From Blastobasis lacticolella (lineage: Eukaryota > Arthropoda > Insecta > Lepidoptera > Blastobasidae): DNA of 64,000 nucleotides. Position 1 is the stretch's first letter, and every line of letters starts with the position of its first letter. A model generated the notes under the pieces. That model made no database searches and was not told the origin of the DNA. It worked only from the letters and a program-made list of their open reading frames with translations. Made by a program: the position numbers and the translations under genes. The stretch is from the NCBI GenBank assembly GCA_905147135.1, contig LR990049.1, forward strand, positions 14,525,428 to 14,589,427. Direction: 5' to 3'. Of the stretch, positions 14,101 through 35,300 are shown piece after piece.

Positions 14101-17100
14101 CTAATATACGTCTTCAAAAACCTTAGACATGCTGCCAATGAGGCTTTACGAAGATCCGTTTACCTTGCGCTGTGCCAGTCTTTACTTCTATACTGCATTA
14201 CAACATGGGGTGGCACACATAAAACAACTATTATTGACTTGGAAAGAGCACAGAGAGCTATCTTAAAAGTTAGTACCTTCCGACCCTTCCGCTATCCGAC
14301 GACCCAATTGCTACATGAATGTGACGTTCTTTCAGTTCGTCAATTATTCATCTTGCAAACGGTTATAAAAAAACACTCTCTAGTGCCCTTCAATCCCGAA
14401 ACCAGTCATAGACGTGCGGACATGGTGTGCAACTATGAATTATTCCGCACACAGCACTCCCACAGGTTTTTCTGTTTCCTTGGCACTTATCTTTATAACA
14501 AATTAAATCGCAACCTAAGTATCCACCTTATGAATAAATTTAATTGCAAATTAACTATCATGAATTGGTTAAAAGGTAAGTCCTACGAGGAGACAGAGAA
14601 AATTCTGGGAGTCGTTGGTTAACTATAAACATAGTACGTAAGTTTTAGTACTTCTAACTCATCCTACTGTACCCTATTCATACAATTTAACCACTTTATT
14701 GTTACACAAAATACATGTAAGAATTAACCTATATATTAAGACCTACTAACCTGGATGCCTAAGATACAAGTAAATCATTTACTTAGTTTAGGTGTCCAAA
14801 CTATCAATAACTAGAATTAAGTACCTATTATTATTTGTGCAAGAGTTGCAAATATGTAGCCTTTATTTTATTTGTACCCATTTACTATAAGTAGGTATGT
14901 TGTAATTTTTAACCACCTTGTAATTTTAGATTAATTTTATTTGAATAAATAAATTTATTATTATTATAAATGCGGCGAAGACAGAGTACATGGCCTGCAA
15001 CAGTACAGACCCCCTACCCGTTCGCATAGGTGAAGAGGAGGTAAAACGAACGGATCGGGCCAGATACCTGGGGTCGGTACTAAGCGCAACTGGTGACATT
15101 GACAGCTACGTTAAAGCCCGAATATCCGCTAGTGGTCGAGCTACGTAAAAAAAAACCGCAAATCGATGTACAGGATAGCCGTTTGGTACACGGGTACTTT
15201 AGGTTAAAACGATCATTTTGACCGGTAGTTCCTAAAAATATCCCTAGGGGGGGGCCAGTAATATTGACATTAATTTTTAATATGGGAATCGAAATTTTTT
15301 TTTTCGGAATCCTATCGTGTTTGGTATCAAATGAAAGGGCATCATAAGCCGGTTCTAAAAATATACTACACCAATAACTTTCAGCCACCTGTTTTCTTAA
15401 AATCCAAGAAATATTTTCAAAACATACCAAGTTTGGACTCCTCCAGGTAGGAGACGGATTAGTAAATTTTTATAAAATATACGCCAAATGACTCTTAATA
15501 TGCCCATATCCAAAGACAAAAAGGCGATTTAAAAAATATTTTAATTTACTAATTTTAAAATATTTTTTTCTTTATTAAAAAGTTGAGATTTAGTATTTTT
15601 TGAATCATATCGAACTGTACTGCACTTTACTATTGTTAATCTATGTTAAATTGATATTAATACGCTTCACCCCCCCCCCCCCCCTTCTCCTCCTGCACCT
15701 GAGAGGATTTTCCTGCACCTGAGAGGAAATCAAATTCGCTTAGGTGCAGAGTGAGGAGTGCGGAGGGAGAGAGGAAAGGGGGAGGGGGAGATAGAAACCG
15801 TAAGAACATTATTTTACATAGATAATAGCATAAAACACAATAATAATAGTACAGTACAGTAGAGTTCGATAAGTTTAAAAAAATACTAAATCTCAACTTT
15901 TTAATAAAGAAAAAAAATATTTTAAAATTAGTAAATTAAAATATTTTTTAAATCGCCTTTTTGTCGTTGGATATGGGTATATTTAGAGACATTTGGCGTA
16001 TGTTATACAAAAATTTACTAATCCGTCTCCTACCTGGAGGAGTCCAAACTTGGTATGTTTTGAAAATATTTCGTGGATTTTTAGAAAACAGGTGGCCGAA
16101 TGGTATTGGTGTAGTATATTTTTAGAACCGGCTCATGATGCCCTTTCATTTGATACCAAACACGATAGGAATCTGAGAAAAAAAAATTCAAATCCCATAT
16201 AAAAAATTAATATCGATATTACTGCTCCCCCCCTGGGAATATTTTTAGGAACTACCGGTCAAAATGATTGTTTAAACCTAAAGTACTCGTATACCAAACG
16301 GCTATCCTGTACATCGATTTGCGGTTTTTTGCCAATATTTGCTGTGTACACCGTCCACTACGCGGCTTGGGCCAAATGGCGGGAGGTGACTGCTGTCATT
16401 TGTGACCCCAAGATGCCGATGAAGCTGAAGGGACAGGTTTACAAAACTATTATTAGACTTGTTCTCTTATACGGCAGCGAGACTTGACCTCTACTAGAGC
16501 GACACAAGCACGAGTTGCGAGTGACGGAAATGAAGATGCTGCGGTGGATGTGTAGGGTTTCCCGGAAAGATCGCGTGCGGAACGCCCACATCCGCGGTAG
16601 CCTTCATGTCCGTGACATCGCGGACAAGCTACAAGTGTGCCGCCTTCGATGTCACGGTCACGTCTTGCGCAGACCGGCAAATTATGTGGGGAACAGAAGT
16701 CTGGCCATGCCACCCCCGCCAGGTACGGGATGGAGAGGCCGGCCCAAAAAGCAATGGCTGGAAGTCGTCAAGAGTGACATGCGTGCCAACAGACTTACCA
16801 TAAAGAATGCCGAAGACCAAGCAAAGTGGGCTAAGAAAAGCAGGAAGGCGGACCCCGGGCCCCCACGTGTTGCGCGGGAGTGCAACCGGGATTTAACGAC
16901 GAGATGATGATGATGAGTTGAAGTACATGAAGCAAATGATTGGGATGTGTTAAAATGGAAAGCCTTATACTCCTAGAAGAAAAATAATTTGTGACCAATA
17001 CTAAAGACCAAAACTTGACAAACTGTACCGTCACTTTGGATCACAATATACTGTGTGTTTTAAATGGAACAATACAAACTAATATTACAGCACATAAGAT

Positions 17101-20100
17101 AGGAAGTTAGGAACAGTTTTAAAGATATTAAAATGAACTGACAAATTCCAAAATGCTATTTTTGAATTATCTCTATATAAATGTTAAAAACTAACACATG
17201 AAACTTCATCAACTGGAAACAAAAAATATTGCTACAAAAGGAAAAAAAAAGAAATTCAAAATCACTTAATTTTTAAAAATTAAGTCTTAAGATGCTTCAA
17301 ATATATCTATTCGTTTAGGAAACTCGTAGTTTCAAATAATCCACTTCTCTTTCTGCTTTCTTTTTCTTTCTGCTGCTGTTTTAGCCGTCTACAAAAAACA
17401 AATGATACAATGCCTGACTGTGTCTACGTATTTCGTGACCGACTCTATAGTATGGCAGACACTACAAAAATGTTTCAAGCTGTCAAAATAGGATTTTTAT
17501 TTCATCATATTATTCTTATCAACATCTCTAATTAACCTAATGGTTACATAAATTTTAAACTATTTATTGGTATGTCGTTACTTAACGTAGGTGTATTTAG
17601 CAAATCATTACAATAATTCTAAATACTTACTGTGAAAATGTTATCAAAACTCCATTATAAAATGCACCTGATACCCACGATGCCAGCATAAAATAACAGT
17701 ATTGCCTAAAATCGAAATATTAAACTTTGTTGCCAGTGTGACAACATAAAATACTAAAGTGTTACCATCAAACTATACTATTTATACAACAAAATAAATA
17801 TTTATATTTTCTCATTTATCGTAGACTTTTACGTGGAATTACCCTTCTGTCTGTCAGGGTCTTCTTTCCTCTTCCTTTTCCACTTTGCCTGGTCTTCAGC
17901 ATTGTCGTATAGGCTATTTGCTCTCATATCTATTTTAGTGATGTCAATCCATCGCTTCTTGGATCTCCCAATATAGTAATATACCTTGTATAAGTGAAAT
18001 GGTCTAATTTTTAAGGGTTCTGAGTACCGAGTTTTATCCCCAATGCTGCCATGTACTTTTCATGGACAGGACTTTTTTTTGAGTTATGTGCATAGTTGTA
18101 CACCAACCGATGCCCTTACAATGAGGGAAACATTGCGATGACACCTGCAGATTAAGTTTACTGAATGTGTAACTGTGATCAAATCTGGCCTAGGTTACGT
18201 AGGTTAGATGGCAGTTGCTCAACTGCCAAATCCTGGATAGATCATGGGACCTCGCGCACGAGAGCACAACAAGATACACAATTACACATTACATACAATT
18301 ACATGTCAGTACACAACTGACACCAAGATTATGATATGATAATGCTGCGCAATGTCGGGCATCAACAGTTTATTGAATTGCTTTGAAGATACAGTACAAA
18401 ATGAAGTTTCTGTGCAATTCCCCATTGTAAAAATGATCTGTGGTGTCTTGTAAATGGCTGATAGTTAAGCTATTGTAATTAACTTATTGTCGTAAGCTGT
18501 GAGACATCCAAATAAAATAAGTTTTTAATTAATAATATAAATTACAATTTGACAATGTAAATTATCTACCAATGACACCTATTATTAAATTAATTAAACT
18601 AATAATATTAATAGTATGAGTGACTAGATTTTATCTTTTTCAGGTTAACATATTTCTTAACTTTTAGTTGGAATCTGTTGGTTTAATGTGAAGTAAATGT
18701 AAATGTCCAAACAAATTTAAAGTGTTACTACTTTTAATTTAACAATGTAATATACCTACTAATATGAGTTGAACTTTCTTCTTTCCACATTCCAATGACT
18801 GGCAGCCTGATTAAATTCATTTGTTTTGAACCAATCAAAATCTATCTCTTACTCAGAGAGTTGAGTTAAATAAGGGTGTATGCTTAATACTTTTAACATT
18901 AATGTGTCTTCTCGTGATTTGCAGCCTAGACGTCCTAAATTCCCGTATAGTAATCCACACATTAGAGACACACGAAGGCTGTACTCATGAGGTGGCTGTA
19001 CCCCCAAATCAAGAATTTGCACCACTTGTTCCGATCTCCACTGAGCCAGCAAAGCAGTACAGTTTCATATTGGATCCCTTTCAGAAAGAAGCTATATTGT
19101 GTATTGATAATTTGCAATCTGTACTTGTCTCTGCACACACATCTGCAGGCAAAACAGTGGTTGCTGAGTAAGTTATGATGTTGTTTTAGATATTAATTTG
19201 ACATTTTGTGTTGTGCATTCATGATAGAACTCCATTATATTATATATTAAAACACTTATACACTAGTTCCTTTAAATATATTATATTTACGAATACATTT
19301 TAAAATGTAAATATTGCCAGAAGCTAATATCTGAAACCGGTCGCAATTAAAAGTTTGAAAATATATTCTATTTAGTGGAACTAGTGTATAAATGTGTTTT
19401 AATCTATAATATTAATAATTTATATAATAATATTTTATGGGTATGACTCTGTCTAAGTGAGAATCGGTCTTACTTCTTCAGTCATCAATCAAAAATGCAA
19501 TTTTATGTGTGTCATGCATGCACTGAATTAATTAATTATTTCGTGAACCATTGCAGAAGTGTATGTTCTAATTAATATCATTCCCATTTTCAAGGTATGC
19601 CATTGCATTGTCACTCAAAAACAAGCAGAGGGTGATATACACCACCCCCATAAAAGCTTTGTCCAATCAGAAATACAGAGAGTTCTCCGAGGAGTTCCAT
19701 GATGTGGGTCTCATTACAGGAGACGTCACTATCAACCCTTCAGCATCTTGTCTTATCATGACCACTGAGGTAAGCGCTCACTAAACACTTGCAAGGATAT
19801 TTGAATTGAATTTATATATGGTGGTATCACTAAATAGCCATATTTTTAATTTGATGTTACAGATTTTGAGAAATATGTTGTATAGGGGCTCAGAAATAAT
19901 GAGAGAAGTTGGCTGGGTCGTGTTTGATGAAATCCACTACATGAGAGACAAAGAAAGAGGGGTTGTATGGGAGGGTACGTATTTCGAAACAGTACGTTTT
20001 TAAAACATAACATATTGTGCCAGTCAGTTATTTTGTACGTCTAGCACGAGTTGCTCTCGCGCACAATAAGCGAGAAAAGGCGCAACAAAAATACTCTTTC

Positions 20101-23100
20101 ATCTTAGTATTGAGAGAAGGAAACAAACGCTCTCTCGCGGCGCGAGCTGTGTCGCGGGCACACTTGTGATAGCCGTGCTAGTCATGGCAGCGAATGAAAA
20201 CTGAGAATCATGACTTGAAATTGACCAGCTTTGTAAGTCTATCAACCAAATCAAAACCAACATTTTCTTTACAGAGACCCTGATACTGTTGCCCGACAAT
20301 GTCCATTACGTGTTCCTATCGGCCACGATACCCAACGCGCGGCAGTTCGCCGAGTGGGTGTGCCGGTTGCACTCGCAGCCGTGCCATGTGGTGTACACGG
20401 AGTACAGGCCAACGCCACTGCAACACTACATCTTCCCAGCTGGGGGCGATGGCATACACTTGGTCGTCGATGAGAGGGTATGACTGTTTGTGTTCGTTTT
20501 GTTGGGTTAAGTTGAGAATACATCAGGTGGCTCGTTTTCCTGTTTCTCTTTCTGTATCCTACTGTCTGTCATAAAAAATCTAGGAATATGTAAAGTAGTT
20601 GTTTCTACCTTCACATTATTTATTAATCTTTCTGTCAACTGTGAGTAGGACTCGTGGCTCCCCTCAGGTTTTGTACCCCATTCAGTCATTTATAGCTACG
20701 GAACCTTAAAAACGAAATTATTGTATTATTGCTGTACAATGTTCCTACAAAAACTGAGCAAGCACTACGTTGAGCGCCTGGTGCGCCTTTTTGGAACATA
20801 TTTTTGTATTGTTATAAGTTCGCTAGCGTTCGACTGGTTAATAATCGAACATTTCCCGTACATCCAGGGCCAATTCAAAGAGGATAACTTCAACACCGCG
20901 ATGGCAGTCCTAAGCAACGCCGGCGACGCAGGCAAGGGCGACCAGCGCGGACGCCGGGGCGGCCCTCGCAACAACAACCAAAATCAGACGAATATATTCA
21001 ATATAGTCAAGATGATAATGGAGAGAAACTTTGCGCCAGTTATCATATTCAGCTTCAGTAAGAAAGATTGCGAGGTGTATGCTATGCAGATGGCCAAGCT
21101 GGACTTCAATACTAGTAAGAATGTTGTTATTAGCGCCAGTTTTCCCGTTGTCCTCTTTAGCCATATTGCCATTGATTCCGATTGAATTTAAATCCGAACT
21201 CATTGAGGGTTTTCACTATTCCAGATGGCGATAGTGGGGCGTAAGGTCTGTTGCCAAAATACTGTCGTGTTATTGGACAGAAACAACGGCGAAAAAATGA
21301 CGAATCCACACCAGCCAATGACAGGGCTTTATTTTGACAGTAGACCTTACGTCACAGTAACGCCATCTCGTGGATTTTAGAATCTCGAAAATCCGCATTT
21401 GCATCTTATGACTGAAAATCGTATAGCAAAATAAAATCATGCTTGTTTTATCTCGTTTTGCTGCTAAGCATCATTGCTTGCATTGTGGTATTTCGGTATG
21501 AAGGAGGCATACCATCCTAGTCGTCGCATGACTCACCTGCGCTGTTTTAATTTTTATTTGCATGTAACCTCTAGTGAATGAACCGTAGATGTTGTAAAAT
21601 GTTCACATGGAAATGGTCCACGGCCGGCCAAGGCACGAGAACGCCTATTAACATTTCACGATTTCTTGCAGTTGAAGAGAAAAAGTTAGTGGACGAAGTG
21701 TTCACGAACGCAATGGACGTCCTGTCCGAGGAGGACCGCAAACTGCCTCAGGTGGAGAATGTCATACCGTTGTTGCGACGCGGTATCGGCATCCATCACG
21801 GAGGTTTGTTGCCCATATTGAAGGAGACTATTGAGATTTTGTTCGGCCTGGGATTGATAAAGGTATTTCAGTTGTTACGTAGCGTTAGGCAGTTGTCTGG
21901 CCCGATATGTGAGAACATTGTTATAGAGTGGTGCTAGTGCCTGTTGGTTGCATGGAATCGTATATTGGTGGTGTCTGGCAGAGTACAATATTGCATGAAC
22001 CCCGTCGACTTGGTTGTTGTACAAGGCGACTAATGTCTGAGAGGCTATATAGATAGGACCTCTATAGGCTTGAAAATGCAAGCCGTGTTCTCTGTTGTGT
22101 AACTTAAATAGCAATCTCTAACCTATGGAGCATTCCACTGATGAGGGAGAGGCTCGACTCCAGCACTGTGCACCTGTACCTATTATTATAATATATCAAA
22201 AATATTGTTGATTACTAGACCTAGAGTATAGGTTTGATCGTTCGTCGCCTCGGTCGGATAACTGCCTTAAATTTACGTAAACTCATTATCGTAATTTTGT
22301 ATAACTTATTTCTTTCCAGGCACTATTCGCGACGGAAACTTTTGCCATGGGATTGAACATGCCTGCGAGGACAGTAGTATTTACAAATTGTCAAAAGTTT
22401 GACGGAAAAGATTTTAGATTTGTTAGTATTTATAATTTATTGTTATTATTGTAATAATTATGTTCAATTGGAGCGGGCTCGTAGACGTTTTAAGCTCATG
22501 TTATTTAATGTGTTTTAGATAACCTCAGGAGAATACATTCAGATGTCTGGCCGTGCCGGCAGAAGAGGTCTTGACGACAAAGGTATTGTGATACTCATGA
22601 TTGACCAAAAAGTGACTCCGGTTATCGTCAAGAGCATGGTACAAGGCAAGGCTGACCCCATCAATTCTGCTTTCCACCTCACTTATAATATGGTTTGTTA
22701 ATTTTTGTTAATATGTACTTTAAACATTATAAATGTCGAAAACAATGTGATATAAAGTTTTTGATTATCAACAGGTATTGAATTTACTACGAGTGGAAGA
22801 GATAAACCCAGAATATATGTTGGAAAGGAGTTTCTTCCAGTTTCAGAATCAGGCAGCCATTCCAGATCTTATTGACAGTAAGTATAGAGTAGAATATTCG
22901 TTCTAGTGAATGAAACTCGGTTGGTTTCTACGGTAGGTCCATGGTGAAAAATTGTGTGTTATACACAAGAGCAAATATTTTAGCTCTTACGCGTGCTTTT
23001 AATAACATTGCCGAAAGATGGGAATTAGAAAAAGGAACTAGTGTAGAGCTCGTCTAATTTAAAATGACGCGCCCCACTATCGCATTAACGCACACAAGCA

Positions 23101-26100
23101 AGTTTACAATATGGACACAATACATATACAAATGCCGTTGTAATTGGTCATTCAGTTGCCGGTAAGATTCAAACGTCGGAGCACGCGCCGTTCATTGGCT
23201 CCCACACAGATGAAGTGTCGTTATTAATATTTGCACTCACACATCGAAATCAACTAACTAAGTAGTGGGGCGCGTCATCTTAGACTAGACGAGCTCTACA
23301 AAAGGTGATTTGTTTCAAAATATCGTGCTTGTAAATCACTCTCTGTGCTCAGTAGGCTATATTAAAATCACTCGCAACGCTCATGATTAAATGCTAGACT
23401 ACTTCGCTAGGTCACGATTTAAACTCGACGCTTGCAGCAAAAAATAAAGCTTTTTTTTATAACAAATAACTATTTCCCCTCCAGAAATGAAAGCCATACA
23501 GAAGGAGTACGACGCGATTACAGTCGAGCAGGAGCACTCCATAGCGTCGTACTGCAGCATCCGCTCGCAGCTGGAGCTGTTGGGCGCGCAGTTCCGCGCC
23601 TTCATCACGCGACCAGAGTACCTCAAGCCGTTCCTGCAGCCTGGGAGACTGGTCAAGGTGCGAGGTTGTCTTGTTTTTATTGAAGGAGGGACTGGCTTTT
23701 ATGCAATTGGAGATTTTCGCACATGTTACCAAGTGTTTCCAAAACACTTGGTAGCTTGGTAGTTATCTTGGTAGCTATCATCATTATCATCACAACCCAT
23801 AATAGTCCACTGCAGGACTTAGGGCCTCTCCCAAAGAGGGGGGGGGGGGGGGGGGGATAGCAGTGTTATAGTTAATATAAAAATACGGAGACAAGATCTG
23901 TTGCCTTGAAAACATTAGTCGCCTTGTAGGACACCCACGAGTGTAAGGTGTTATTCTACTCTGCCGGACACCAATCGGCCTATGTACCTATGACACGCCT
24001 GAATTACATTATGACGGCAGGTGGCTTTTTATTGAAATTTCCGGACTTGAAAAGCAATTAAAAATCGCCTCTATTGGAATGATAGCAGGCTTAAAGATAA
24101 TTTGCATCGAGACACAGACCGTGAAATTACTTTTCTGGGAAATGTGAGGTTAAGTAAACAAATATGACATTTGCAATCTCATATATTTAAGACCGTATAA
24201 TTTAGGGACATACTGCTGTTTAGTGTGGCGATACTGACTCAAAACTAAACTTTTTTGAAATATGATATTGAAGAACCCTTTTCATTTTAGCCAGTTTTCT
24301 CGTGTCTATATTTTAACAATTCAATTCAGGTGAAAAACGAGAAACACGAGTACGACTGGGGTATAATAGTGAACTTCAGGCATCGCACGGAGAAGGGCAA
24401 GAAGGGGCAAGAAGCGAACCCCCTCACAGCGGAGACGGCTATCGTGGTGGACATACTTCTTCACGTGAAGAAAGCTGACGGTGACAACGAGCCTTGCCCG
24501 CCTGGAGAGGTATGTATTGACACTGTAATATACTGAAGACATGTATTAAAATGGGGATAACAGCCCGTCAAAAATCTTCTTTTTTATTTTTTTCGTTTAT
24601 CTTTTTATTCTCCCTATGATTGATTATTTATTAAAATGACAAGAAATACACAGGAAAGCTTAAGAGGTACTACATAATTATTATAAACATCACAACATGC
24701 ACTACTTATCTTTAGAAAGAAATTTGTTCTAGCAGGCCTATAAAATATATATGTTATAGAATGTGAGGGCGCCGTAGGTTACCGTAAAACATAAGACGTT
24801 TAGGAGTAGTCTTCACAATGTTGGTGTGCCCGTGCCCATGGAGGCACACCGAGTGGCGAGCTCCTTGCGATACTGAAGTTTGACTAGCCTCACAAAGTAT
24901 GATACGATCACCCAGTTCCCAGACATTGCGAGCAATGCTTAACCTTGGTTATCGGTCTCGCAAGCCGGCTACCATTAGACCAAGCCTCTGAGTGTCTTTG
25001 AAGGTTGTAACTAATAAACAAATATTCCTCCCTCACAGCCAGGAGACGTGGAAGTGGTTCCCGTTCTTCACACGCTCATCTACCAGATCAGTTCCCTTCG
25101 CGTGTACTATCCGAAGGATCTGCGGCCCGCAGACAACAGGAAGTCGGTGCTGAAAACCATTGGCGAGGTGAAAAAACGGTTCCCTGAAGGGCCGCCACTG
25201 CTGAACCCGATAAAGGACATGAAGATAGAAGAAACCGTCTTTAAGGAGGTGGTCGACAGGATCAAGAAGTTGGAGGAGAGGTGGGTACTTACAGACAAGA
25301 AAAAAAGTTAAGAGAGACGTGAGATATTTAAGGGGTTCCACCATACTATGATGTAACAGCTGAAGTACTCAGTTTGACAGTAATTTGTTGTTGAAAAAGC
25401 GGTAGTTCTTTTTCACTGCTTTCTTGACAGACTAGGTTTACGGACGAAAAGCAAACTAAAGAGAGATTTTCGACCAGGGTGTCTAAGGCCACATTAGCGT
25501 TTCAAATTATGATTCATATTAGAGTGCAACAAACTTATCTGATCCGCTGGCCAATACTGGAACAGAGTAACGGCATTTTGAATTGTCTTGTCAATGTCAA
25601 AACAGCGACGCTGCAGACAAATTAATATGAATCATATTATGAAACGCTAATAACGTGGCCTATTTAGACACCCAGATGGCGCTACTGCGGCGTAAGATCT
25701 GCTGTCACAATATTGCCGCGCTATTGGACAGACAAGACAGGTGTATGTCAGATCCATTCTAGCCAATGACGCGGCTTTATTTTAACGGCAGACATCACGT
25801 CTCAATAGCGCCACCTGGTGGGGCTTTCTGGTAGAAACCCTCATTTCTGTATAGTGCATCACACGGGTGTTCCGTGTTCAGGGGCCTTACGGCCTAACTT
25901 GAATGCTGTCGCTTATGACTCGCAAATGCTTCCGTTAAGAGTTAGGCGGCTTGGCTCCAGTTGGCAATTATGACGTCAACGTTCTTATCATTTTACGATT
26001 GAAGTCTTTGTAGAACGGTTTTTGATGAGACGGTACCGTTCACTATGCGTTGTTTGATCTAAACGAATCGGCCCTTCCACCATAAGCGGATAAGTCTTGC

Positions 26101-28907
26101 TAATAGGGCCCACCCTTCAAACTGTCAAAGTATATCTTCCTTTAGAAATCACCTCCGATTTCAGCGTTACTGCTCCTGCCTGTCATTCTTTATAGCGTAT
26201 CCTACATACAAAACACCATTCCAGATTATACGCCCACGAGTTACACAAAGACAAGAGCCGGGGCGCCCTGACAGCGGCGTACGAACGCAAACAGCAGGTC
26301 CGCGAAGAGCTGCAACTAGCTAAAACTGAACTGAGGAAAGCCAAGAGTATATTGCAAATGGACGAACTTAAGAAGAGAAAACGGGTGCTGAGGAGGATGG
26401 GGTACTGCACGGCCTCGGATGTGATCGAGCTGAAGGGGCGGATAGCGTGCGAACTGAGCAGGTTGGTGCTAAGTAATATTGTTAGAGATTTTCATTGGGT
26501 GTTTTGCTTTGGTGATCTTGTTAAAGAGTATCGTAGATACAGTTGCCGTTATTGTATTGTCATTGGATACTGTGCTGTTCCTTTTTAAAGAGATTTAAAA
26601 ACAGTCGTTGATGTGTTGGTAACGTTCAAATCAGCGTAGAAATGAATATATCTGCATTAACGTGGTCAGGTATAGATAAACAGTTGCGTTGTGGGTGGCC
26701 CGGAGGGAGACATATGTCTAACACTGGTGGTTCTGTACCTGTGAAATGTCGGGTGGCTCCCGACAGGCCGATACTATTCAACCAGTCTCAAAGTCCCCAA
26801 CGTTGATTTTGGTCAACCTCTCTTCGCTAACGTTATTAGGAGGCCCACCCAACGAGGTCGACTGAAGTTCGACTAGCTTCAAAGTACGAAACAATCACCC
26901 ACCCAGTCCCCAGACTCTGCATACCCTACCTGTACCCAGTATTAAATAAATCTTTCCCTCCAGTGCGGACGAGCTGCTTCTAACAGAGCTGATATTCAAC
27001 GGCGTATTCAACGCGCTGTCGGCCGGCCACAGCGCCGCTCTGGTTTCCTGCTTCGTATGCGACGAGAACACAAATCAAGCCTCCAACGCTGGCGAGGAGC
27101 TGCGAGGGGTGCTGAGGCAGCTGCAGGTATCTCCCTCTTCTGTTTTGCCTCTAGGATATAATGGGTGACGTGGAAATATAACTCCAGATAAGGCGAGCTA
27201 CGCGAACGCTCTAGAGCGGGATGGGCGAGACAGAAATGTAGATAGACGCGTATATGTTGCCCAGGCTTAATAGCTACACAACAATAAAAGTTTCATTCAA
27301 ATCCGTCCAGTAGTTCCGGAGATTAGCGTGTACAACGAGACAGACACAAATTGTAAAAATGCTTATTCTATTATTATTTATTTATCGCCCTATATTTTTT
27401 AAAATCTATTCAATGTACTAACAGACACCGTTTTTTACTGTTTTATTATATTTATATAGATATACAAAGTATGGTGCTCAGTGGACAACAAACTTTTAAG
27501 TTCTACAACTAGATTAAATTAATTAAATAGCGCTGACGCGACAGCGCGCCCAGTGTATGTAGGTACCGTGCATGAACATTTACACAAACGTCCAGCGTTG
27601 GCGAGGAGGTAGATCTGCAGATATCTCTTTCGCCTAATGGACAAGATTGTTTTGAACAGAACTGTTTGGGGGAGCATAAGACCTTCAGTAGGGTGGGACT
27701 GAAGCCTGCTCATGATGATGACGTGCTCTTTTTTTTATAATGAAAATGGCAGGATGACAACAAAAAGTACTACTTCAATTTCAATTTATTTCGCATTCCA
27801 TATGTTACAAACCACGAATTGAAAAACTGCGTCTTTTTCGAAATCAGTTAATTAAAATGACACGATGTCCACTAGAAGTACTATACAAAACATTATAGTG
27901 TCTACCTTTTCTATCCAGGAATTTGCCCGTCGCATAGCGAAGGTGTCTACGGACGCCAAAATGGACCTGGATGAGGACGAGTACGTCGGCAAGTTCAAGC
28001 ATACGCTGATGGACGTAGTGCTGGCGTGGTCCAAGGGCGCCGCCTTCCTACAGATTTGCAAGATGACAGATGTATTTGAGGGTGAGTTCAAGCTTATAAC
28101 TTGCATGACATGCATGAGACAGAGCCGAATGTTTCTTTTTTGCCTATTTTTCGACTTCTCTAATACAAGTCGACTGACGACCTGAGAGGATCAGTTGGTT
28201 GACATCCGGTCGTAACAACAGGTCGGTCCGCCAAGCTGAGGTCCCGGGTTCGATTCCCGGCCGGGCAGAAATTGAAATGATGAATTTTCATTTCTGTTAA
28301 GGGTCTGGGTGTTATATGGTTAATAAGCATTCATTTAAAAATGTATAGGTAGTTCATCAGTTCCCTGGCATCCATAACACAAGCTTTGCTTACTTTGGGG
28401 CTAGATGGCGCTGTGTGAATTGTTCATTAAAAAAAGTATTCAATCTGTAAGGACTGAATAGTCTGAATCTGAACTTGATGTAACAAATATTTAGTCTGAA
28501 TTCTTATAATTGATTAATCGTTACATAAGACATTATGAATGTGATGGACAAATTTAGGTTCTAGAAATATTTTATTGAAAACGCACTTGCAAATCAGCCA
28601 AGCCCTTGTTTTTTTAAAGTTACACTAGCCAGGCATAGCTTTCAGCGCTTTCCTAATTGGCTACTGTCTTGCGACAGCTGGTTATGAGATCTATTGGTCG
28701 CACGATCGTTGCCATTAGGACAGCGCCTTATAATTTGTTGTATTTTCAGGGTCGATAATAAGGTGCATGCGGCGACTAGAAGAAGTACTCCGCCAGCTGT
28801 GCCAGGCCGCCAGGAACATCGGCAACACAGACCTAGAGAATAAATTCAGCGAAGCTATAAAACTACTCAAGAGAGATATTGTGTTCGCCGCCAGTTTATA
28901 CATGTAA
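2173..28907 (+). CDS. Mtr4: Mtr4/MTREX exosome RNA helicase, complete, 18 exons
   Basis: Ski2-like DExH RNA helicase of the nuclear exosome (TRAMP, NEXT and PAXT complexes). It unwinds RNA 3' to 5' and feeds it to the exosome. Exons: 2173-2273, 2534-2656, 18925-19167, 19595-19769, 19863-19974, 20275-20477, 20868-21114, 21672-21862, 22320-22421, 22519-22692, 22775-22877, 23485-23657, 24330-24509, 25039-25280, 26225-26461, 26964-27126, 27919-28081, 28750-28907. They sum to 3,090 nt (1,029 aa) with every phase agreeing; human MTR4 is 1,042 aa. Motifs: AHTSAGKT at 145-152, DEIH at 236-239, SAT at 267-269, [10 protein letters not shown] at 507-516. The Arch/KOW insert spans about 590-830 and the DSHCT helical bundle is at the C-terminus (end FAASLYM). 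Exon 9 uses a weaker donor, GTTAGT, and gives DFRF where vertebrates have DFRW. The N-terminus is short and acidic. It is Mtr4 rather than SKI2 because the C-terminal half matches MTR4 throughout. Confidence 0.95.
2393..2490 (+). mobile_element. SINE family B, head fragment
   Basis: tRNA-like head (CACTGGTCTAGTGGCAGC, then GTTAAGCAATGCTCGCAA) in Mtr4 intron 1. The same head and body occur antisense at 24770-24995, and the body alone at 26800-26930. The shared order of head and body supports a dispersed tRNA-derived SINE. Confidence 0.55.
2706..2929. mobile_element. MITE with about 20-bp terminal inverted repeats
   Basis: Left end CACATGGCTATTTGTATTTG; the right end is its reverse complement with one mismatch. 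It is about 224 bp, non-coding, and lies just inside Mtr4 intron 2. Confidence 0.6.
3631..4293 (+). pseudogene. Endonuclease domain of RTE copy 1
   Basis: Exonuclease-endonuclease-phosphatase fold of an RTE retrotransposon, related to proteins labelled craniofacial development protein 2-like. Visible motifs are FLQETRW (catalytic Glu), [26 protein letters not shown] and [11 protein letters not shown]. The N-terminal SWNLGTL segment, intact in copy 2, is out of frame upstream near 3590, so the domain cannot be made from a normal start. Confidence 0.75.
4424..5050 (+). pseudogene. Linker and start of RT, RTE copy 1
   Basis: Continues the RTE polyprotein in another frame: [20 protein letters not shown] linker, then [19 protein letters not shown] and GHDGIPIE, which precede the RT palm. 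The frame breaks near 5040 and again before the insertion of the inner element at 5130. Confidence 0.65.
5130..6310 (+). mobile_element. 5'-truncated RTE element nested in RTE copy 1
   Basis: Flanked by a perfect 12-bp target-site duplication, AATCTACATATA (5118-5129 and 6311-6322). It encodes an open RT and C-terminal region from the insertion point to the TGA at 6286-6288: [36 protein letters not shown] and a Cys/His-poor C-terminal domain. It ends in a GATGATGATGATGATG tail. It lacks the endonuclease and 5' part, as usual for incomplete reverse transcription. It differs in sequence from its host element, so it is another RTE family. The intact 1.15-kb frame suggests a fairly young insertion. 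Confidence 0.85.
6337..7580 (+). pseudogene. RT and C-terminal region, RTE copy 1
   Basis: Resumes the host element after the nested insertion: [68 protein letters not shown] and GGLKLNVAK (6337-6978), then [19 protein letters not shown] and [14 protein letters not shown] (7164-7580) in another frame. The GGxPQGS-type palm motif is altered to GGHQGSVPS. At least one frameshift lies between 6960 and 7164. Confidence 0.75.
7994..8482 (+). pseudogene. Endonuclease N-terminal part, RTE copy 2
   Basis: Contains [50 protein letters not shown] and TNLVSAYAP. After SAYAP the frame runs into a perfect palindrome (8384-8437) that replaces the expected coding sequence, then continues as DADKALFWE in another frame. 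The later endonuclease motif [13 protein letters not shown] is readable near 8510-8545. Confidence 0.65.
8384..8437. repeat. Perfect 54-bp palindrome
   Basis: Two 27-nt arms with no loop (8384-8410 and 8411-8437) centred on TTGC|GCAA. It lies in the endonuclease region of RTE copy 2. Copy 1 has ordinary coding sequence at the same place, so this is an inverted duplication of one short segment. Confidence 0.9.
8708..8793 (+). mobile_element. Short insertion with polyadenylation signal and TTAC tail
   Basis: 86-bp AT-rich insert splitting the INYFLTRRD motif of RTE copy 2. It is flanked by TACTTT on both sides (8702-8707 and 8794-8799). Its 3' end holds CAATAAAGAG followed by TTACTTACTTACTTAC, which looks like the terminal stub of a severely truncated retroelement. 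Confidence 0.5.
8883..9257 (+). pseudogene. Linker region, RTE copy 2
   Basis: Readable as [20 protein letters not shown] and [20 protein letters not shown], equivalent to the linker of copy 1. It ends at a stop at 9255-9257; homologous coding sequence continues in other frames. Confidence 0.55.
9541..10180 (+). pseudogene. Reverse transcriptase region, RTE copy 2
   Basis: [20 protein letters not shown], then [13 protein letters not shown] and IITPVYKG, then a stop, then [20 protein letters not shown] and [20 protein letters not shown]. The segment between IDII and [10 protein letters not shown] is deleted at about 10065-10085, removing part of the palm. The catalytic box reads YVDD. Confidence 0.65.
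10382..11623 (+). CDS. LINE ORF1, gag-like nucleic-acid-binding protein
   Basis: 413 aa; starts [12 protein letters not shown]. The N-terminal third is Ser/Pro-rich, and a middle region (about 225-315) begins [20 protein letters not shown] and resembles the RRM-like fold of such ORF1 proteins. The C-terminus has CCHC knuckles: [14 protein letters not shown] and [14 protein letters not shown] (both CX2CX4HX4C), then a looser CATC...H...C. The product should coat the element RNA. Stop TAG at 11621-11623, with ORF2 starting 38 nt later. Confidence 0.85.
   Translation: MDSPFANRNMRILRSPPPERHHVESAPAPSEPPAASSTPAREVVSTAEISGWLSSIEQCLNEICVISSEGKLNSEQKLKISSISRNIMGGVSQLAVQYQSIKQKHMSGLSLIKNLSRQELTNDLISDLKQSFMSAQKSPSNPSFADIVRTSNNAAIRPSTTRSIAIYPADTNKTSDETKKLVQDLVKPEELKLHVRGLRKTKNGGVIISTDRKEDLDKLKKSQTLISSGLKLEETSKKRPRIIVLNIPTNMTEKEVVQCIFEQNIMDKHPSFDKDKFYSSIKLSHKSGRKDASTCNFIIELTGELRRMIIEQGRVFINWSSCPVRDYTLLTRCYNCHQYGHSAKHCRDTTPICGHCGDSGHTIKECPKTTEPAKCATCARYKKPASHKTGDVSCPAKKSAEVRYVSFIDYEGA
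11662..14622 (+). CDS. LINE ORF2, endonuclease and reverse transcriptase
   Basis: 986 aa with no internal stop. The N-terminal endonuclease has [19 protein letters not shown] (catalytic Glu), [27 protein letters not shown] and [13 protein letters not shown] runs from about residue 500 to 770: [66 protein letters not shown] and YADD at 696-699. A thumb and C-terminal region follow ([22 protein letters not shown]). There is no RNase H. All catalytic residues I can check are present. Confidence 0.88.
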   Translation: MGNATKTIVDDIDSAFKYKSVQCDPDKCSSMINKSEHNLNILVQNIRSINCNFDGMLALHRNINLDVDIIVLTECWLSSAPTIPQIDSYNSYVSESSNVLQNDGVALFIKADCTNVTVEEPDIADANCLIAKIGNDIVIVAIYRSPSYRNIDNFLRSLCTILSTLTSFKNVFVVGDLNIDIKTGNLDRNSPEYLTQMAYHGFIPAHLYPTRGPNCLDHVLARSTLPLKSFIINSTLTDHSTVLLSVQKKVSRSYAVSFSRKQNNAAIASDLENLDTTCIYSTNDANEATQYFIAALQNIIEKNTTTTILPQRKKLIKPWLTPGLLRCIRNRDSLHKKLTKDPNNPILKTTYHRYRNFCNNLLKKLKRQYEKFQIENAGQDKKRLWQAIKNITNTHTTTTSPRALIADSATASQNINLVNNFFASIGKTLAEKIKVNSSSTTRPTCTTTQIPKLNSFVLMDTDENEVESIIMTLRNDCASGIDNIPCSFIKLHKKHLIAPMTYIFNLCLSTGVFPKVLKKALIKPIHKKGDKSCVNNYRPITLLPSISKILERIIYKRLVQYLECNQLLAPSQYGFRSGRSTNDAVDNLTDYLVRQLDSQKKCLAIFLDLAKAFDTVTIPILLDKLQILGIRGLPHRLIKDYLTDRTQRVSIDNIISEELPTEYGIPQGSIMGPILFLIYVNELCSLPLTNGRIITYADDTALLFSDNSWTEVFRQAQEGFYSVSRWLKNNALTLNTDKTKYMTFSYNSSTQPPVNMYNIVAHSCLTTDPLKQNNTCSCPKISSTKSMTYLGVIIDQHLNFKLHIEALTTRMRKLIYVFKNLRHAANEALRRSVYLALCQSLLLYCITTWGGTHKTTIIDLERAQRAILKVSTFRPFRYPTTQLLHECDVLSVRQLFILQTVIKKHSLVPFNPETSHRRADMVCNYELFRTQHSHRFFCFLGTYLYNKLNRNLSIHLMNKFNCKLTIMNWLKGKSYEETEKILGVVG
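15146..16330. mobile_element. Foldback element with about 0.5-kb inverted repeats
   Basis: Arms 15146-15640 and about 15830-16330 are imperfect inverted copies for nearly their whole length. The ends are AAAACCGCAAATCGATGTAC and its complement. The roughly 190-bp centre holds a run of 15 C (15670-15684) and a small direct repeat of CCTGCACCTGAGAGGA. No transposase is visible, so it would be a non-autonomous DNA element. It splits RTE copy 2; CTACG on both sides (15141-15145 and near 16361) may be remnants of the target, but the right boundary is not clean. Confidence 0.75.
16345..16907 (+). pseudogene. C-terminal region of RTE copy 2
   Basis: Follows the foldback element: [10 protein letters not shown] and [20 protein letters not shown], then a stop, then [34 protein letters not shown] and [20 protein letters not shown] to a TGA at 16905-16907. 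It is the counterpart of 7164-7580 in copy 1. Confidence 0.7.
16931..18100 (+). other. Mtr4 intron 2, downstream part
   Basis: AT-rich non-coding sequence after the LINE nest. Apart from the antisense RTE fragment at 17838-17972 I see no gene, RNA or clear repeat. Confidence 0.5.
17838..17972 (-). mobile_element. RTE 3' fragment, antisense
   Basis: Minus-strand translation gives [20 protein letters not shown] and [17 protein letters not shown], the C-terminus of the RTE family seen at 7435-7560. Only the terminal segment survives. Confidence 0.7.
18101..18333 (+). mobile_element. SINE family A copy
   Basis: Shares ordered blocks with copies at 47118-47335, 63139-63378 and (antisense) 48857-49197: AACCGATGCCCTTACA, GAAACATTGCGATGA, GTGATCAAATCTGG, CAAATCCTGGATAGATCATG and a GACACCAAGAT end. 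It stops about 20 bp before the exon-1 copy. Confidence 0.7.
18352..18449 (+). pseudogene. Copy of Mtr4 exon 1 inside intron 2
   Basis: Matches exon 1 (2173-2273) at about 85% over roughly 85 nt, plus about 20 nt upstream of the ATG. It reads [18 protein letters not shown] and [14 protein letters not shown] before a TAA, against [18 protein letters not shown] in the real exon. The original donor is not preserved. A GTAAAT at 18450 would end a 98-nt exon in the same phase as exon 2, hence compatible with exon 3. It is probably a duplicated remnant; use as an alternative first exon is untested. Confidence 0.75.
19238..19412. mobile_element. MITE in Mtr4 intron 3
   Basis: Inverted ends of about 35 bp: TATTAAAACACTTATACACT and AGTTCC on the left, and their complement with few mismatches on the right (19375-19412). 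Non-coding. Confidence 0.65.
21222..21369. mobile_element. MITE family M copy 1 (Mtr4 intron 7)
   Basis: Terminal inverted repeats start with AGATGGCG and contain GGCGTAAGGTCTG. The same element, with ATTGGACAGA and AGCCAATGAC in the middle, recurs at 25673-25818. Confidence 0.65.
21955..22060 (-). repeat. Decayed copy of the AGTCCACTGC repeat
   Basis: Contains degenerate GTGTCTGGCAGAGTACAATA and GTACAAGGCGACTAATG, the complement of blocks in the repeat at 23776-24005. It lies in Mtr4 intron 8. Confidence 0.45.
23043..23299. mobile_element. MITE in Mtr4 intron 11
   Basis: 257 bp with inverted ends of about 35 bp: GTAGAGCTCGTCTAA then AATGACGCGCCCCACT, and the complement at 23265-23299. No ORF. 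Confidence 0.75.
23776..24005 (+). repeat. Dispersed lepidopteran-type repeat (AGTCCACTGCAGGACTTAGG)
   Basis: Holds AGTCCACTGCAGGACTTAGG, CCTCTCCCAAAGAGG, a run of 19 G (23838-23856), and a 3' part with GTCGCCTTGTAGGACACCCA and TATTCTACTCTGCCGGACAC. The same blocks in reverse order and complement are at 38060-38330. I recognise the CCACTGC...CCTCTCCCAA block as abundant in moths and butterflies. Confidence 0.65.
24770..24995 (-). mobile_element. SINE family B, near full length
   Basis: On the minus strand it starts with a tRNA-like head (GGCTTGGTCTAATGGTAGCC, then GGTTAAGCATTGCTCGCAA), continues CTGGGAACTGGGTGATCGTA and ends near ACCAACATTGTGAAGACTAC. It is in Mtr4 intron 13. Confidence 0.6.
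25478..25672. mobile_element. MITE in Mtr4 intron 14
   Basis: 195 bp; inverted ends GGTGTCTAA...GGCCAC, ATTAGCGTTTC and ATGATTCATATTA against their complements at 25622-25672. It directly abuts another MITE at 25673. Confidence 0.75.
25673..25818. mobile_element. MITE family M copy 2
   Basis: Ends CCAGATGGCGCTACTG and its complement; internal GCGTAAGATCTGCTGTCA, TATTGGACAGA and AGCCAATGACGCGGCTTTAT match copy 1 at 21222-21369. Confidence 0.65.
26800..26930 (-). mobile_element. SINE family B, body fragment
   Basis: Matches the body of the copy at 24770-24995: GAAGTTCGACTAGCTTCAAA, GTACGAAACAATCACCCA and CAGTCCCCAGACTCTGCA. It has no tRNA head and is in Mtr4 intron 15. Confidence 0.5.
28165..28445 (+). 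mobile_element. tRNA-derived SINE (Mtr4 intron 17)
   Basis: The tRNA-like head has a B box, GGTTCGATTCC, within TCCCGGGTTCGATTCCCGG, followed by GGCAGAAATTGAAATG. The body runs to CATCCATAACACAAGCTTTG and CTTACTTTGGGGCTAGATGG, a 3' end typical of lepidopteran SINEs. The head does not fold into a full cloverleaf, so it is not a tRNA gene. Confidence 0.7.
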
Positions 28908-32233: not shown

Positions 32234-32335
32234 TCACGTGGCGACAGACGCCAACCACTGCAGCAATAGCGCGGCCGCCAGCGCCGCCGCCGGCCGCGCG
32301 GTGCAGCCGCGACCGCATGACAGGATCTCAATCTC
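32234..32335 (-). CDS. Alpha-2/delta last exon, hydrophobic C-terminal tail
   Basis: Acceptor CCCCATCAG, phase 0, 33 codons then TGA (32234-32236). It reads EIEILSCGRGCTARP, followed by an Ala/Leu-rich stretch AAALAAALLLQWLASVAT. Family members end in the same way (Cys-Gly-Gly then a hydrophobic segment), which is processed as a GPI anchor signal or a membrane segment. It is joined to the exon ending at 33929 across the minisatellite intron. Confidence 0.85.
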   Translation of the reverse strand, partial: EIEILSCGRGCTARPAAALAAALLLQWLASVAT

Positions 32336-35300
32336 CTGATGGGGAAGAATATCGGGAATGTTAGCGTCTCACTTACATGTAATAAAAAACATTTATTACA
32401 CTAAATCATATGGCACAGCAGATACACTAATATAAAGAAAAGGAAATAATCATAAACTACAATGACAGCAGGAACGACGATATAGTATAAGGCAGACGCC
32501 GAAACTGACCGCTCGGTTGATAACGATGAAAGACGTTATAGTAGTGTCTCGGCGGTGGCGCCACAAAGCCAAAATGAAGCCTACTGATCTCTTATTTAAC
32601 TTAACTACTTTTGACGCTAACTGCCGGTGTGTCAGCTTGCCATCTACAGCCCCTCACCTCCGGATGGTATGGCGGCGTTGCCACAAAGCCAAAATGAAGC
32701 CTACTGATCTCTTATTTAGCTTAACTACTTTTGACGCTAACTGCCGGTGTGTCAGCTTGCCATCTACAGCCCCTCACCTCCGGATGGTACGATACGCAGT
32801 GTTTCGGGCGGCGGCGTCAGAAAGCCAAAATGAAGCCTACTGATTTCTTATTTCGCTTAGATACTTTTGACGCTAACTGCCGGTGTGTCACATTTGCCAT
32901 CTACAGTCGCTCACCTCCGGATAGTACGACACACAGTGTCCGCGGTCGCTCACCTCTGAATGGTAGGACACGCTGCGTCTGGGGTCGCTCACCTCCGGAC
33001 GGTACGACACGCTGCGTCTGTAGTCACTCACCTCCGGATGGTACGACACACATTGTCTGGGGTCGCTTACCTCCGGATGGTACGACACGCTGCGTCTGTA
33101 GTCACTCACCTCCGGATGGTAGGACACGCATTGTCCGGGGTCGCTTACCTCCGGATGGTACGACACGCTGCGTCTGTAGTAACTCACGTCCGGATGGTAG
33201 GACACGCATTGTCCGGGGTCGCTTACCTCCGGATGGTACGACACGCTGCGTCTATAGTCACTCACCTCCGGATGGTACGACACGCTGCGTCTGTAGTCAC
33301 TCACCTCCGGATGGTACGACACGCTGCGTCTGTAGTAACTCACGTCCGGATGGTAGGACACGCATTGTCCGGGGTCGCTTACCTCCGGATGGTACGACAC
33401 GCTGCGTCTATAGTCACTCACCTCCGGATGGTACGACACGCTGCGTCGGTAGTCACTCACCTCCGGATGGTACGACACGCTGCGTCTGTAGTCACTCACC
33501 TCCGGATGGTACGACACGCTGCGTCTGTAGTCACTCACCTCCGGATGGTACGACACGCTGCGTCTGTAGTCACTCACCTCCGGATGGTACGACACGCTGC
33601 GTCTGTAGTCACTCACCTCCGGATGGTACGACACGCTGCGTCTGTAGTCACTCACCTCCGGATGGTACGACACGCTGCGTCTGTAGTCACTCACCTCCGG
33701 ATGGTACGACACGCTGCGTCTGGAGTCACTCACCTCCGGATGGTACGACACGCTGCGTCTGTAGTCACTCACCTCCGGATGGTACGACACGCTGCGTCTG
33801 TAGTCACTCACCTCCGGATGGTACGACACGCTGCGTCTGTAGTCACTCACCTCCGGATGGTACGACACGCTGCGTCTGGGGTCCCTCACCTCCGGATGGT
33901 ACGTCATGCTGCGTCTGTAGTCACTCACCTCCGGATGGTAGGACACGCAGTGCCTCGGGCGGCGGCGGTGCGCGAGGCCGGCGCGGCGGCACGCGGCCCG
34001 CGGCGGCGCCTCCCGCGGCCGCACGTCCAGCCGCTTGGCGCCGCACGGGCACAGCGTGTCCACCACCAGCAGGATCAGGTTGCTGTGCGGGATCTTCTGC
34101 ACGCTGAACGGTCTGCGGGAGGGTGGTTGTTAGTGTCGAAGGTGGTGGATGATCATATAGGCTGTGAGGGTGCCAAAGGTCATTGAGCAAGTACAAGAAA
34201 AATTCCACTTTGTAGCGATAGAGTTTTAGGAGACCCATAAAAGTAGAAGTAATAAAAGCCTCGGGCACAGCTTGTCCACCACCAGCAGGATCAGGTTGCT
34301 GTGCGGGATCTTTTGCACGCTAAACGGTCGAGGGGTGGCAGGGGGTTTATCAAATTATCGTCTCTGTTGTAGGACGTCCACTGCGAAACATTGGCGTTCT
34401 CCCCACGCCTTACAAACTGATCGGCTATGTGCCTCTTGCATCCATCGGGCCATTCCATACGACATAATTTTACGTACAGTCTGACTAGATTAACAAACAA
34501 ATTGTCTCCTGTGGACGGGCGACAACCTGATTGAATCGGATTGTGTCGTATGGATGGGCCATGAGGTACTGATTAGATTACGCTCACTTAAAAGTCTGTC
34601 TGGCGGTGGCGTGGGGGCCGGGTCGCTTTTTTCCCTCAAATATGGTTGAATTGGACGATGGCTGGGCCCTGCATTATACTCGTGAACGGGTGCTGCCTTG
34701 GTGGACTGGCTTACTCTTGCTGTAGTTTTAGGTGGTTTTTCTTAATTTTACTAGACATATTTATATAATATATTGAGCGCGGTCCGGCTTTGCCTGGCAT
34801 TTTCGGGCACGGTCCGGTCGTGACTGGGGTGGGATGGGTTTGCTACTGCCATGAGGCGGCCAGCGTGTCACTGTGTGCTTCCTTCCTACTTTCAAACCCC
34901 CCTCCTTTTTGACGATTGAAAGAGATATTTAATGTCTTAATAAAAAAAAAATTGCAAGTAAATAGTGAGGTGTGGACGGACAATCAGATTGTGTCGTATG
35001 GAAGGGCCCAAAGAAACCATGTTGTACCTTGCAGCTTTGATTTCAGGTACATTACGTACATACGAGGGTGTGGGTTAGTGGTCAAAATATTGTATTTGAA
35101 GGTTAAGATGTGGCCTGACAAAAATACATTGAGAGCTGCAATATATTATGTAATATACTTTTTGTAACAATCTTGTGTACAATAAATGGTTAAATAAATA
35201 ATAATAAATAAATAAAATCCTACTACCGTGACACAGTTTGACCATGGGTTGTCTCGCTGTGGCTGTCTGTGGTGCATGACAATTTTACAAAGTATCATCA

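What the first reader, a model, noticed from the sequence alone, without database searches (positions are those of the whole stretch)
32903..33957. A minisatellite that multiplies an in-frame 5' splice site at the end of an alpha-2/delta calcium-channel exon
Seen directly: the penultimate exon ends YHPE|GTGAGT at 33929, and this junction is part of a 39-bp unit repeated about 27 times into the intron. Nearly every unit keeps a consensus donor (GTGAGT, GTGAGC, GTGAGG or GTAAGC) preceded by CCGGAG. The unit is 13 codons and the gene's frame stays open until a TGA at 32885-32887; every donor falls in the same phase as the last exon at 32335. Inference: choice among donors would yield proteins with 0 to about 26 copies of VSDYRRSVSYHPE just before the Cys and the hydrophobic anchor segment, with no frameshift. 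Repeat-number variation between individuals could tune splicing or C-terminal length. Conservation of donor and frame across units could also simply reflect recent expansion.
Basis: partly seen in the sequence, partly recalled or inferred. Interest (0 to 1): 0.87.

Follow-up and report, generated by a model that had tools for sequence, protein, structure and literature searches.

The report
Minisatellite copying an exon's splice donor
In a moth calcium-channel helper gene, a short stretch of DNA that includes the end-of-exon splice signal has been copied about 27 times in a row, which could let cells make slightly longer versions of the protein, although no RNA evidence yet shows that they do.

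Summary
A 39-bp unit spans the end of the penultimate exon of a stolid-type alpha2delta calcium-channel gene and repeats into the intron. It gives 27 donors in one register (last exonic bases 33929 to 32915). 25 of 27 pair with U1 at -9.6 to -10.3 kcal/mol, stronger than 19 of the gene's 20 other modelled donors; 5 of 1,399 background GTs reach that level. All share phase 0 with the last exon, and the frame stays open for 26 units. A unit-core pattern has no match outside this locus in the 577-Mb assembly.

The functional reading is unproven. Unit differences show no significant constraint. The insert would fall inside a Cys-X12-Cys segment kept by 112 of 112 scorable orthologue models. A second moth, Scirpophaga incertulas, appears (indirectly) to carry tandem copies of the same junction at spacings (56, 76 nt) that do not keep frame.

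Best reading: a recent, mostly neutral expansion. Splicing mainly uses the first donor, with probable leakage to the next few in 13-residue steps. The precedent is human IFI6 (6-16), so this is a new member of a known kind.

The parts
33929..34112 (-). Penultimate exon (184 nt) of the stolid-type alpha2delta gene, ending ...RRRPRHCVSYHPE; donor 1
   Evidence: tblastn with orthologue P0018, splice-consistent model, translation
32915..33928 (-). 26 in-frame 39-bp units (consensus GTGAGTGACTACAGACGCAGCGTGTCGTACCATCCGGAG, VSDYRRSVSYHPE), each ending in a further donor (donors 2-27)
   Evidence: a 27-base unit pattern with up to 3 mismatches matches only at this locus
32888..32890 (-). First in-frame stop (TGA) after the array
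32778..32816 (-). Larger-scale second copy of the exon end (35 of 39 nt) with donor GAG|GTGAGG
   Evidence: TRF periods 136 and 120, blastn, U1 energy -10.2
32560..32789 (-). 120-bp tandem duplication of exon end plus intron start, 1.9 copies; holds the third donor copy, after base 32658
32336..32400 (-). Acceptor region of the shared last intron (GCTAAC, branch-like by eye; pyrimidine tract; ATCAG); AATAAA at 32397-32392
   Evidence: sequence
32234..32335 (-). Last exon: EIEILSCGRG + hydrophobic tail, stop TGA
34262..34329 (-). Partial upstream copy of the start of the penultimate exon (68 bp, 95.6%), without an AG at the acceptor position

Best explanation
A 39-bp segment spanning the exon-intron boundary (about the last 24-30 nt of the exon and the first 9-15 nt of the intron) was tandemly duplicated and then amplified, the central block (units 3-14) recently (inferred from the unit sequences). 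This multiplied a strong phase-0 5' splice site 27-fold (shown). Most transcripts are probably spliced from donor 1, and a minority from the next few donors. Those transcripts would add VSDYRRSMTYHPE, then VRDPRRSVSYHPE and so on, in 13-residue steps inside the Cys-X12-Cys segment before the hydrophobic tail (inferred). The array itself is most likely a neutral by-product of repeat instability at a GC-rich exon that has been partly duplicated in other ways too, tolerated because it does not disrupt use of the first donor (inferred).
For: 27 donors at exact 39-nt spacing. U1 duplex energy is -9.6 to -10.3 kcal/mol for 25 of 27, against a median of -1.4 for 1,399 GTs on the same strand, of which 5 reach -9.6 (one of the 5 is the gene's own donor at 50279); of the 20 other modelled donors one is stronger and 19 lie at -4.5 to -8.9. 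Founder models of intron start plus exon end match the units at up to 34 of 39. The unit order ABCCCDCCCCCCEFGHCFGHICJKLM shows a homogeneous block and a repeated FGH block, as amplification leaves. A 27-base unit pattern with up to 3 mismatches has 27 matches in 577 Mb, all at this locus (26 in the array, 1 in the larger copy at 32778). Of the 120 listed orthologue models 113 join YHPE directly to the last exon; in 112 of those 113 both flanking cysteines are present and in all 112 they stand 12 residues apart; mammalian alpha2delta-1 has CX11C at the aligned place. [quoted passage not shown]
Against: No RNA data, so neither use of donor 1 nor leakage is shown. Competition studies recalled from the literature (not looked up) often favour intron-proximal donors when U1 occupancy is high, which would predict long inserts. 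Orthologue proteins are annotations and cannot show donor choice in this species. The neutral reading rests on a weak test (22 distinct substitutions), in which each measure leaned in the direction of constraint without reaching significance.
Confidence: 0.55

Rival explanations
1. The array is an inert intronic passenger: only the 33929 donor is ever used and no isoform arises.
For: Exact CX12C spacing in 112 of 112 scorable orthologue models and the exon-definition preference for short exons (recalled) both favour donor 1. No significant constraint among units. No annotated protein with the array came up in a region-limited search, but that search was insensitive: it returned only one of the many orthologues that share the exon end.
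Against: 25 of 27 donors have near-identical U1 pairing, so complete silence of donor 2, only 39 nt away, would be surprising. IFI6 uses two downstream units.
Confidence: 0.25
2. Intron-proximal donors dominate: U1 occupies many units and the donors nearest the acceptor win, giving proteins with long repeat tails before the hydrophobic tail.
For: Downstream donors 25-27 remain strong (-9.7), and the frame is open to donor 27.
Against: It would need an exon of up to 1,198 nt between introns of about 1.2 and 1.6 kb (coordinates) and a large insert in a conserved segment.
Confidence: 0.1
3. Selected protein-length or splicing rheostat: unit number and donor choice are used to vary the alpha2delta C-terminal segment.
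For: Unit length is a multiple of three, phase 0, with no stop in 26 units. None of the 22 distinct substitutions hits +1, +2 or +5 of the donor. A second moth appears to have tandem copies of the same junction.
Against: Randomised substitutions avoid those donor bases with P 0.17 and avoid stops with P 0.58 (both together 0.09); synonymous excess P 0.17. One plus-strand frame is also stop-free across the array. The Scirpophaga motif copies are spaced 76 and 56 nt, not frame-keeping.
Confidence: 0.07
4. The array acts as a cluster of U1 sites that represses premature polyadenylation at the intronic AATAAA (32397), or lets a read-through form without the hydrophobic tail end at 32890.
For: One A[AT]TAAA hexamer lies in the intron, about 60 nt upstream of the last exon. 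29 donor-like U1 sites lie upstream of it, two of them weak.
Against: Nothing beyond position; one such hexamer in a 1.6-kb intron is unremarkable; no RNA data.
Confidence: 0.03

Closest known systems
Minisatellite of human IFI6 (6-16, G1P3), Turri et al. 1995
   Same: A minisatellite whose repeat units serve as alternative splice donors; transcript variants of exons two and three use two downstream repeat units as donors, giving three mRNA species (passages of PMC4526556; the original, PMC306954, is not held).
   Different: Unit 39 bp here against 12 bp there (12 bp recalled); donor use is reported there and not shown here; interferon-induced protein against a channel subunit; here the insert would fall in a conserved Cys-X12-Cys segment.
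[quoted passage not shown] PMC4974935, abstract)
   Same: A tandem duplication crosses an intron-exon boundary and multiplies splicing signals.
   Different: There the duplication covered the intron 1 / exon 2 boundary (the acceptor side) and a new intron arose; here the donor side is multiplied 27-fold and no new acceptor is seen.
Lectins with variable tandem repeats in Macrobrachium nipponense (PMC7536079, passages)
   Same: Repeat-number variation plus alternative splicing diversify a protein.
   Different: In the passages seen, repeats and alternative splicing are separate sources of diversity; the repeats are not said to supply the donors.

Membership tests
Donor-multiplying minisatellite (IFI6 type) | Tandem array begins at or spans an exon-intron boundary | tested here: met
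   Orthologue-guided exon end at 33929, array continues to 32915
Donor-multiplying minisatellite (IFI6 type) | Most units carry a 5' splice-site consensus | tested here: met
   27 of 27 have GT; 25 of 27 at -9.6 to -10.3 kcal/mol with U1, 2 of 27 at -5.3
Donor-multiplying minisatellite (IFI6 type) | Units keep reading frame with the downstream exon (feature recalled) | tested here: met
   39 nt, phase 0, open through 26 units
Donor-multiplying minisatellite (IFI6 type) | More than one donor is used in mRNA | not testable with these tools
   No transcript data reachable
Donor-multiplying minisatellite (IFI6 type) | Unit number varies between individuals | not testable with these tools
   One assembly only
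alpha2delta subunit, stolid type | VWA_N and VGCC_alpha2 domains in order | tested here: met
   Exon by exon: VWA_N 63 bits (cut-off 34.7) at 51232-50984; VGCC_alpha2 53.8 bits (cut-off 22) at 36381-36091. Below cut-off in their single exons: VWA 22.6 (23.8), VGCC_alpha2 19.4 at 36860-36477 and 11.8 in the penultimate-exon frame
alpha2delta subunit, stolid type | Closest relatives are lepidopteran alpha-2/delta-3, -4 or stolid models | tested here: met
   Of 60 listed proteins compared, best are Pectinophora P0001 (87.4%) and Hyposmocoma P0003 (86.1%) over about 1,100 aa
alpha2delta subunit, stolid type | GPI anchor at the C terminus | not tested
   Hydrophobic tail present by eye; no anchor predictor at hand

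The most novel reading that the evidence does not exclude
In some moths the donor of the last intron of an alpha2delta gene is repeatedly turned into a minisatellite. Cells then make a ladder of channel-subunit isoforms in 13-residue steps in the conserved Cys-X12-Cys segment next to the anchor, with the length range set by each allele's unit number: a heritable, fast-mutating dial on calcium-channel trafficking.
Probability: 0.06. Interest if true: 0.85.

Novelty: new member of a known kind. Interest (0 to 1): 0.42.

Why it matters
It is a natural 27-way competition between mostly near-identical 5' splice sites in one intron, in frame, so the isoform ladder, if present, directly reports donor-choice rules (exon definition against intron proximity). 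If unit number varies between individuals it is also a natural dose series. The apparent recurrence at the same junction in a second moth suggests that some exon-intron boundaries are prone to such expansions, which can be checked in existing moth genomes and RNA data.

Tried and rejected
Selection on donor or frame: 22 distinct substitutions (against the unit consensus) were randomised over same-base positions; 8 synonymous against 5.7 expected (P 0.17), no stop (P 0.58), no hit on +1, +2, +5 (P 0.17), both of the last two together 0.09. Not significant, so not claimed, but all lean towards constraint.

Unusual RNA structure: the 382-nt fold has z -2.8 against dinucleotide shuffles, 1 of 100 folding as well, but against tandem control arrays with the 30 non-donor bases shuffled, 57 of 150 fold as well and 43 of 150 hide the donor as much. 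Rejected.

Dispersed or mobile origin of the unit: not supported, because the 27 matches of a 27-base unit pattern (up to 3 mismatches) in 577 Mb are all at this locus. Whether the rest of the intron is repeated elsewhere was asked but did not complete.

Same array in a paralogue: a 9.9-kb stretch that seems to hold the end of one alpha2delta paralogue and the start of another (L011) shows one two-copy 24-bp tandem repeat and no array; the paralogue's last exon was not identified, so this control is incomplete.

Annotated proteins carrying the array: a search limited to the junction plus ten unit types returned one protein at E <= 0.001, an ordinary orthologue, P0003. Only the 7,992 candidates sharing most words were scored, and most orthologues with the same exon end were missed, so the negative is weak. 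A search with the end of the Scirpophaga protein (residues 1010-1108) returned only itself among 91 candidates.

Use of AGs inside the unit as acceptors: considered and rejected by inspection; no pyrimidine tract (C+T 0.45 over the array) and the AGs at unit positions 13-14 and 19-20 are out of phase with the donors.

Genome-wide base rate of triple strong donors: asked as one pattern search, never answered. A protein search for paralogous last exons did not complete.

Rfam on the whole window: no match at the gathering thresholds. Pfam on the array frame: PA28_C at 22.5 bits passes its cut-off of 20.9 for the whole protein with no single stretch passing; taken as a repeat artefact.

Full report
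OBSERVATION. Tandem Repeats Finder reports 32905-33948, period 39, 26.8 copies, no indels, score 1633. Read on the minus strand, 27 donors follow each other at exactly 39 nt from 33929 to 32915: 19 GTGAGT, 4 GTAAGC, 3 GTGAGC and 1 GTGAGG; 24 of 27 are preceded by CCGGAG (recount). A 27-base pattern from the unit, with up to 3 mismatches, has 27 matches in the 577-Mb assembly that holds the window: 26 at donors of the array and 1 at the larger copy at 32778; the reversed control pattern has none. Two junction copies, donor 26 and the copy at 32658, fall below that pattern's threshold, so 27 is the count of matches, not of donors.

GENE. A protein search with exon pieces found 551 relatives at E <= 1e-10 among 7,987 scored candidates; 120 are listed, and the 30 best rows are lepidopteran alpha2delta models, some of them isoforms of one species. 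Guided by one of them (P0018, Leguminivora), a 22-exon model gives 1,095 aa with the first part of the gene missing. Borders were searched among AG/GT candidates only, so canonical borders are built in; what the model shows is that such borders exist with an open frame throughout. The closest of 60 proteins compared are Pectinophora (87.4%) and Hyposmocoma (86.1%), so the moth is nearest to gelechioids (family recalled) among the species listed; it is not identified further. Some sources call these models stolid, the name given to Drosophila CG4587 (PMC7426832, passages). The junction is exon 34112-33929, intron 33928-32336, last exon 32335-32234, phase 0.

DONOR STRENGTH. Duplex energy with the U1 5' end (nine bases, recalled) is -10.3 kcal/mol for 17 donors, -10.2 for 1, -9.7 for 3, -9.6 for 4 and -5.3 for 2 (GAC|GTGAGT). 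Of 1,399 GTs on the same strand at 34500-60000, real donors included, 5 reach -9.6, one of them the gene's own donor at 50279. Of the gene's 20 other modelled donors, that one (-11.7) is stronger than the array donors and 19 lie between -4.5 and -8.9. This is a pairing estimate, not a trained splice model.

ORIGIN. Aligning intron-start plus exon-end founders against the units gives the best mean for 15 nt of intron (32.65 of 39); 8, 9, 15 or 17 nt of intron each give a best single unit of 34 of 39. So the unit is a copy of the boundary itself: some 24-30 exonic and 9-15 intronic bases, the exact breakpoint being unclear. Units 3-14 differ from the consensus by at most one base; units 15, 19, 21, 23, 25 and 26 differ by 6-10, and a three-unit block (FGH) recurs. 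On a larger scale the same exon-end/intron-start occurs again at 32778 and 32658 in 120/136-bp duplications, and the start of the same exon is partly copied upstream at 34329-34262. Both ends of this exon have therefore been duplicated in this genome.

PROTEIN CONSEQUENCE. Of the 120 listed orthologues (of 551), 113 join YHPE directly to the last exon. Of the other 7, one (P0072, Tribolium) has a 16-residue insert that reads like a retained short intron, and six are models that end or derail before or at the junction (P0025, P0028, P0029, P0030, P0051, P0067). Of the 113, one (P0096) ends before the second cysteine; the other 112 keep exactly 12 residues between the flanking cysteines. Mammalian alpha2delta-1 aligns there with CX11C. 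Any donor after the first puts 13n residues into this segment. These are annotations and show what annotators modelled, not what the splicing machinery does.

SECOND MOTH. The Scirpophaga incertulas model (P0025) derails after CPCGAKR into an 85-residue tail. In that tail three places can encode YH[PT]E followed by GT, at nt offsets 38, 114 and 170, so spaced 76 and 56 nt and in shifting frames; shuffled tails give 0.064 on average, and 0 of 500 reach three. Six other tails tested have none. A degenerate-codon periodicity test finds top lags of 60 (20.5), 132 (16.1), 56 (13.0) and 76 (12.2); the top score is reached by 0 of 300 shuffles. The 95% point of the shuffle maxima is 13.0 and their maximum 17.5, so only lag 60 exceeds every shuffle, 132 passes the 95% point, 56 equals it and 76 does not reach it. 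Four other moth tails peak at 9.8-10.6. I infer that this species also carries tandem copies of the same boundary, with another period and not frame-keeping. No DNA of that species was reachable, so this is indirect. Whether the two arrays share an origin cannot be told.

IS IT SELECTED? Over 32915-33928 the minus reading frame of the gene and one plus-strand frame have no stop, one further plus-strand frame has a single stop, and the other three have 19-27, so an open frame is weak evidence of coding. Randomising 22 distinct substitutions gives no significant sign of constraint on coding or donor core, though each measure leans that way, and the test is weak. Predicted RNA structure is ordinary for a tandem array.

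MECHANISM. Shown: duplicated boundary, near-equal donor strength for 25 of 27, common phase, open frame, no match of the unit pattern elsewhere in the assembly. Inferred: donor 1 dominates, because flanking introns of about 1.2 and 1.6 kb favour exon definition and a short exon (recalled principle) and because the segment is conserved; leakage to the next donors is likely because they are as strong and only 39 nt away. The nearest precedent, IFI6, uses two downstream repeat units as donors and makes three mRNA species (PMC4526556, passages).

LITERATURE. Ten searches of the held open-access library were used (two of them, 21 and 41, returned nothing). I saw passages of PMC4526556, PMC2572611 (its reference list only), PMC7536079 and PMC7426832, and the abstract of PMC4974935; the rest as listings only. 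None of the listings names a donor array in an alpha2delta gene; this is not proof that none is in print.

CORRECTIONS. The cysteine count was 112 of 113 and is 112 of 112, since the odd one was the Tribolium insert. Three frames had been called open across the array; two are stop-free and a third has one stop. An earlier count said that the last units resemble the exon end best, and entry 2 says 112 of 113; one search does not bear out the first, one search corrects the second.

VERDICT. Observation confirmed; functional reading open and, on balance, less likely than a recent neutral expansion with minor splicing leakage. New member of a known kind, with two points of interest: near-identical competing donors on this scale, and the apparent recurrence at the same junction in another moth.

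Noticed in passing
window 53637-53425 (minus): 90%-identical, 5'-truncated copy of the alpha2delta exon at 54053-53831, lying just downstream of it; possible alternative or dead exon.
   Followed up: partly
window 34329-34262 (minus): 68-bp, 95.6%-identical copy of the start of the penultimate exon, lacking an AG at the acceptor position.
   Followed up: partly
window 32397-32392 (minus): A single AATAAA in the array-bearing intron, about 60 nt before the last exon; a potential intronic polyadenylation site.
   Followed up: no
P0072 (Tribolium castaneum model): A 16-residue insert (VSRSFCLVGVTIVLLQ) at the same junction, which reads like a retained 48-nt in-frame intron.
   Followed up: no
window 3568-14622 (plus): Several long frames that look like non-LTR retrotransposon endonuclease and reverse-transcriptase parts, judged from the translations only.
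   Followed up: no
window 18830-26588 (plus): Frames that look like exons of an Mtr4/SKI2-type RNA helicase gene, judged from the translations only.
   Followed up: no
G000:C10:15136500-15146400 (L011): What seem to be two further alpha2delta-like genes or gene parts about 0.6 Mb away on the same contig: the end of one and the start of another, on the same strand.
   Followed up: partly
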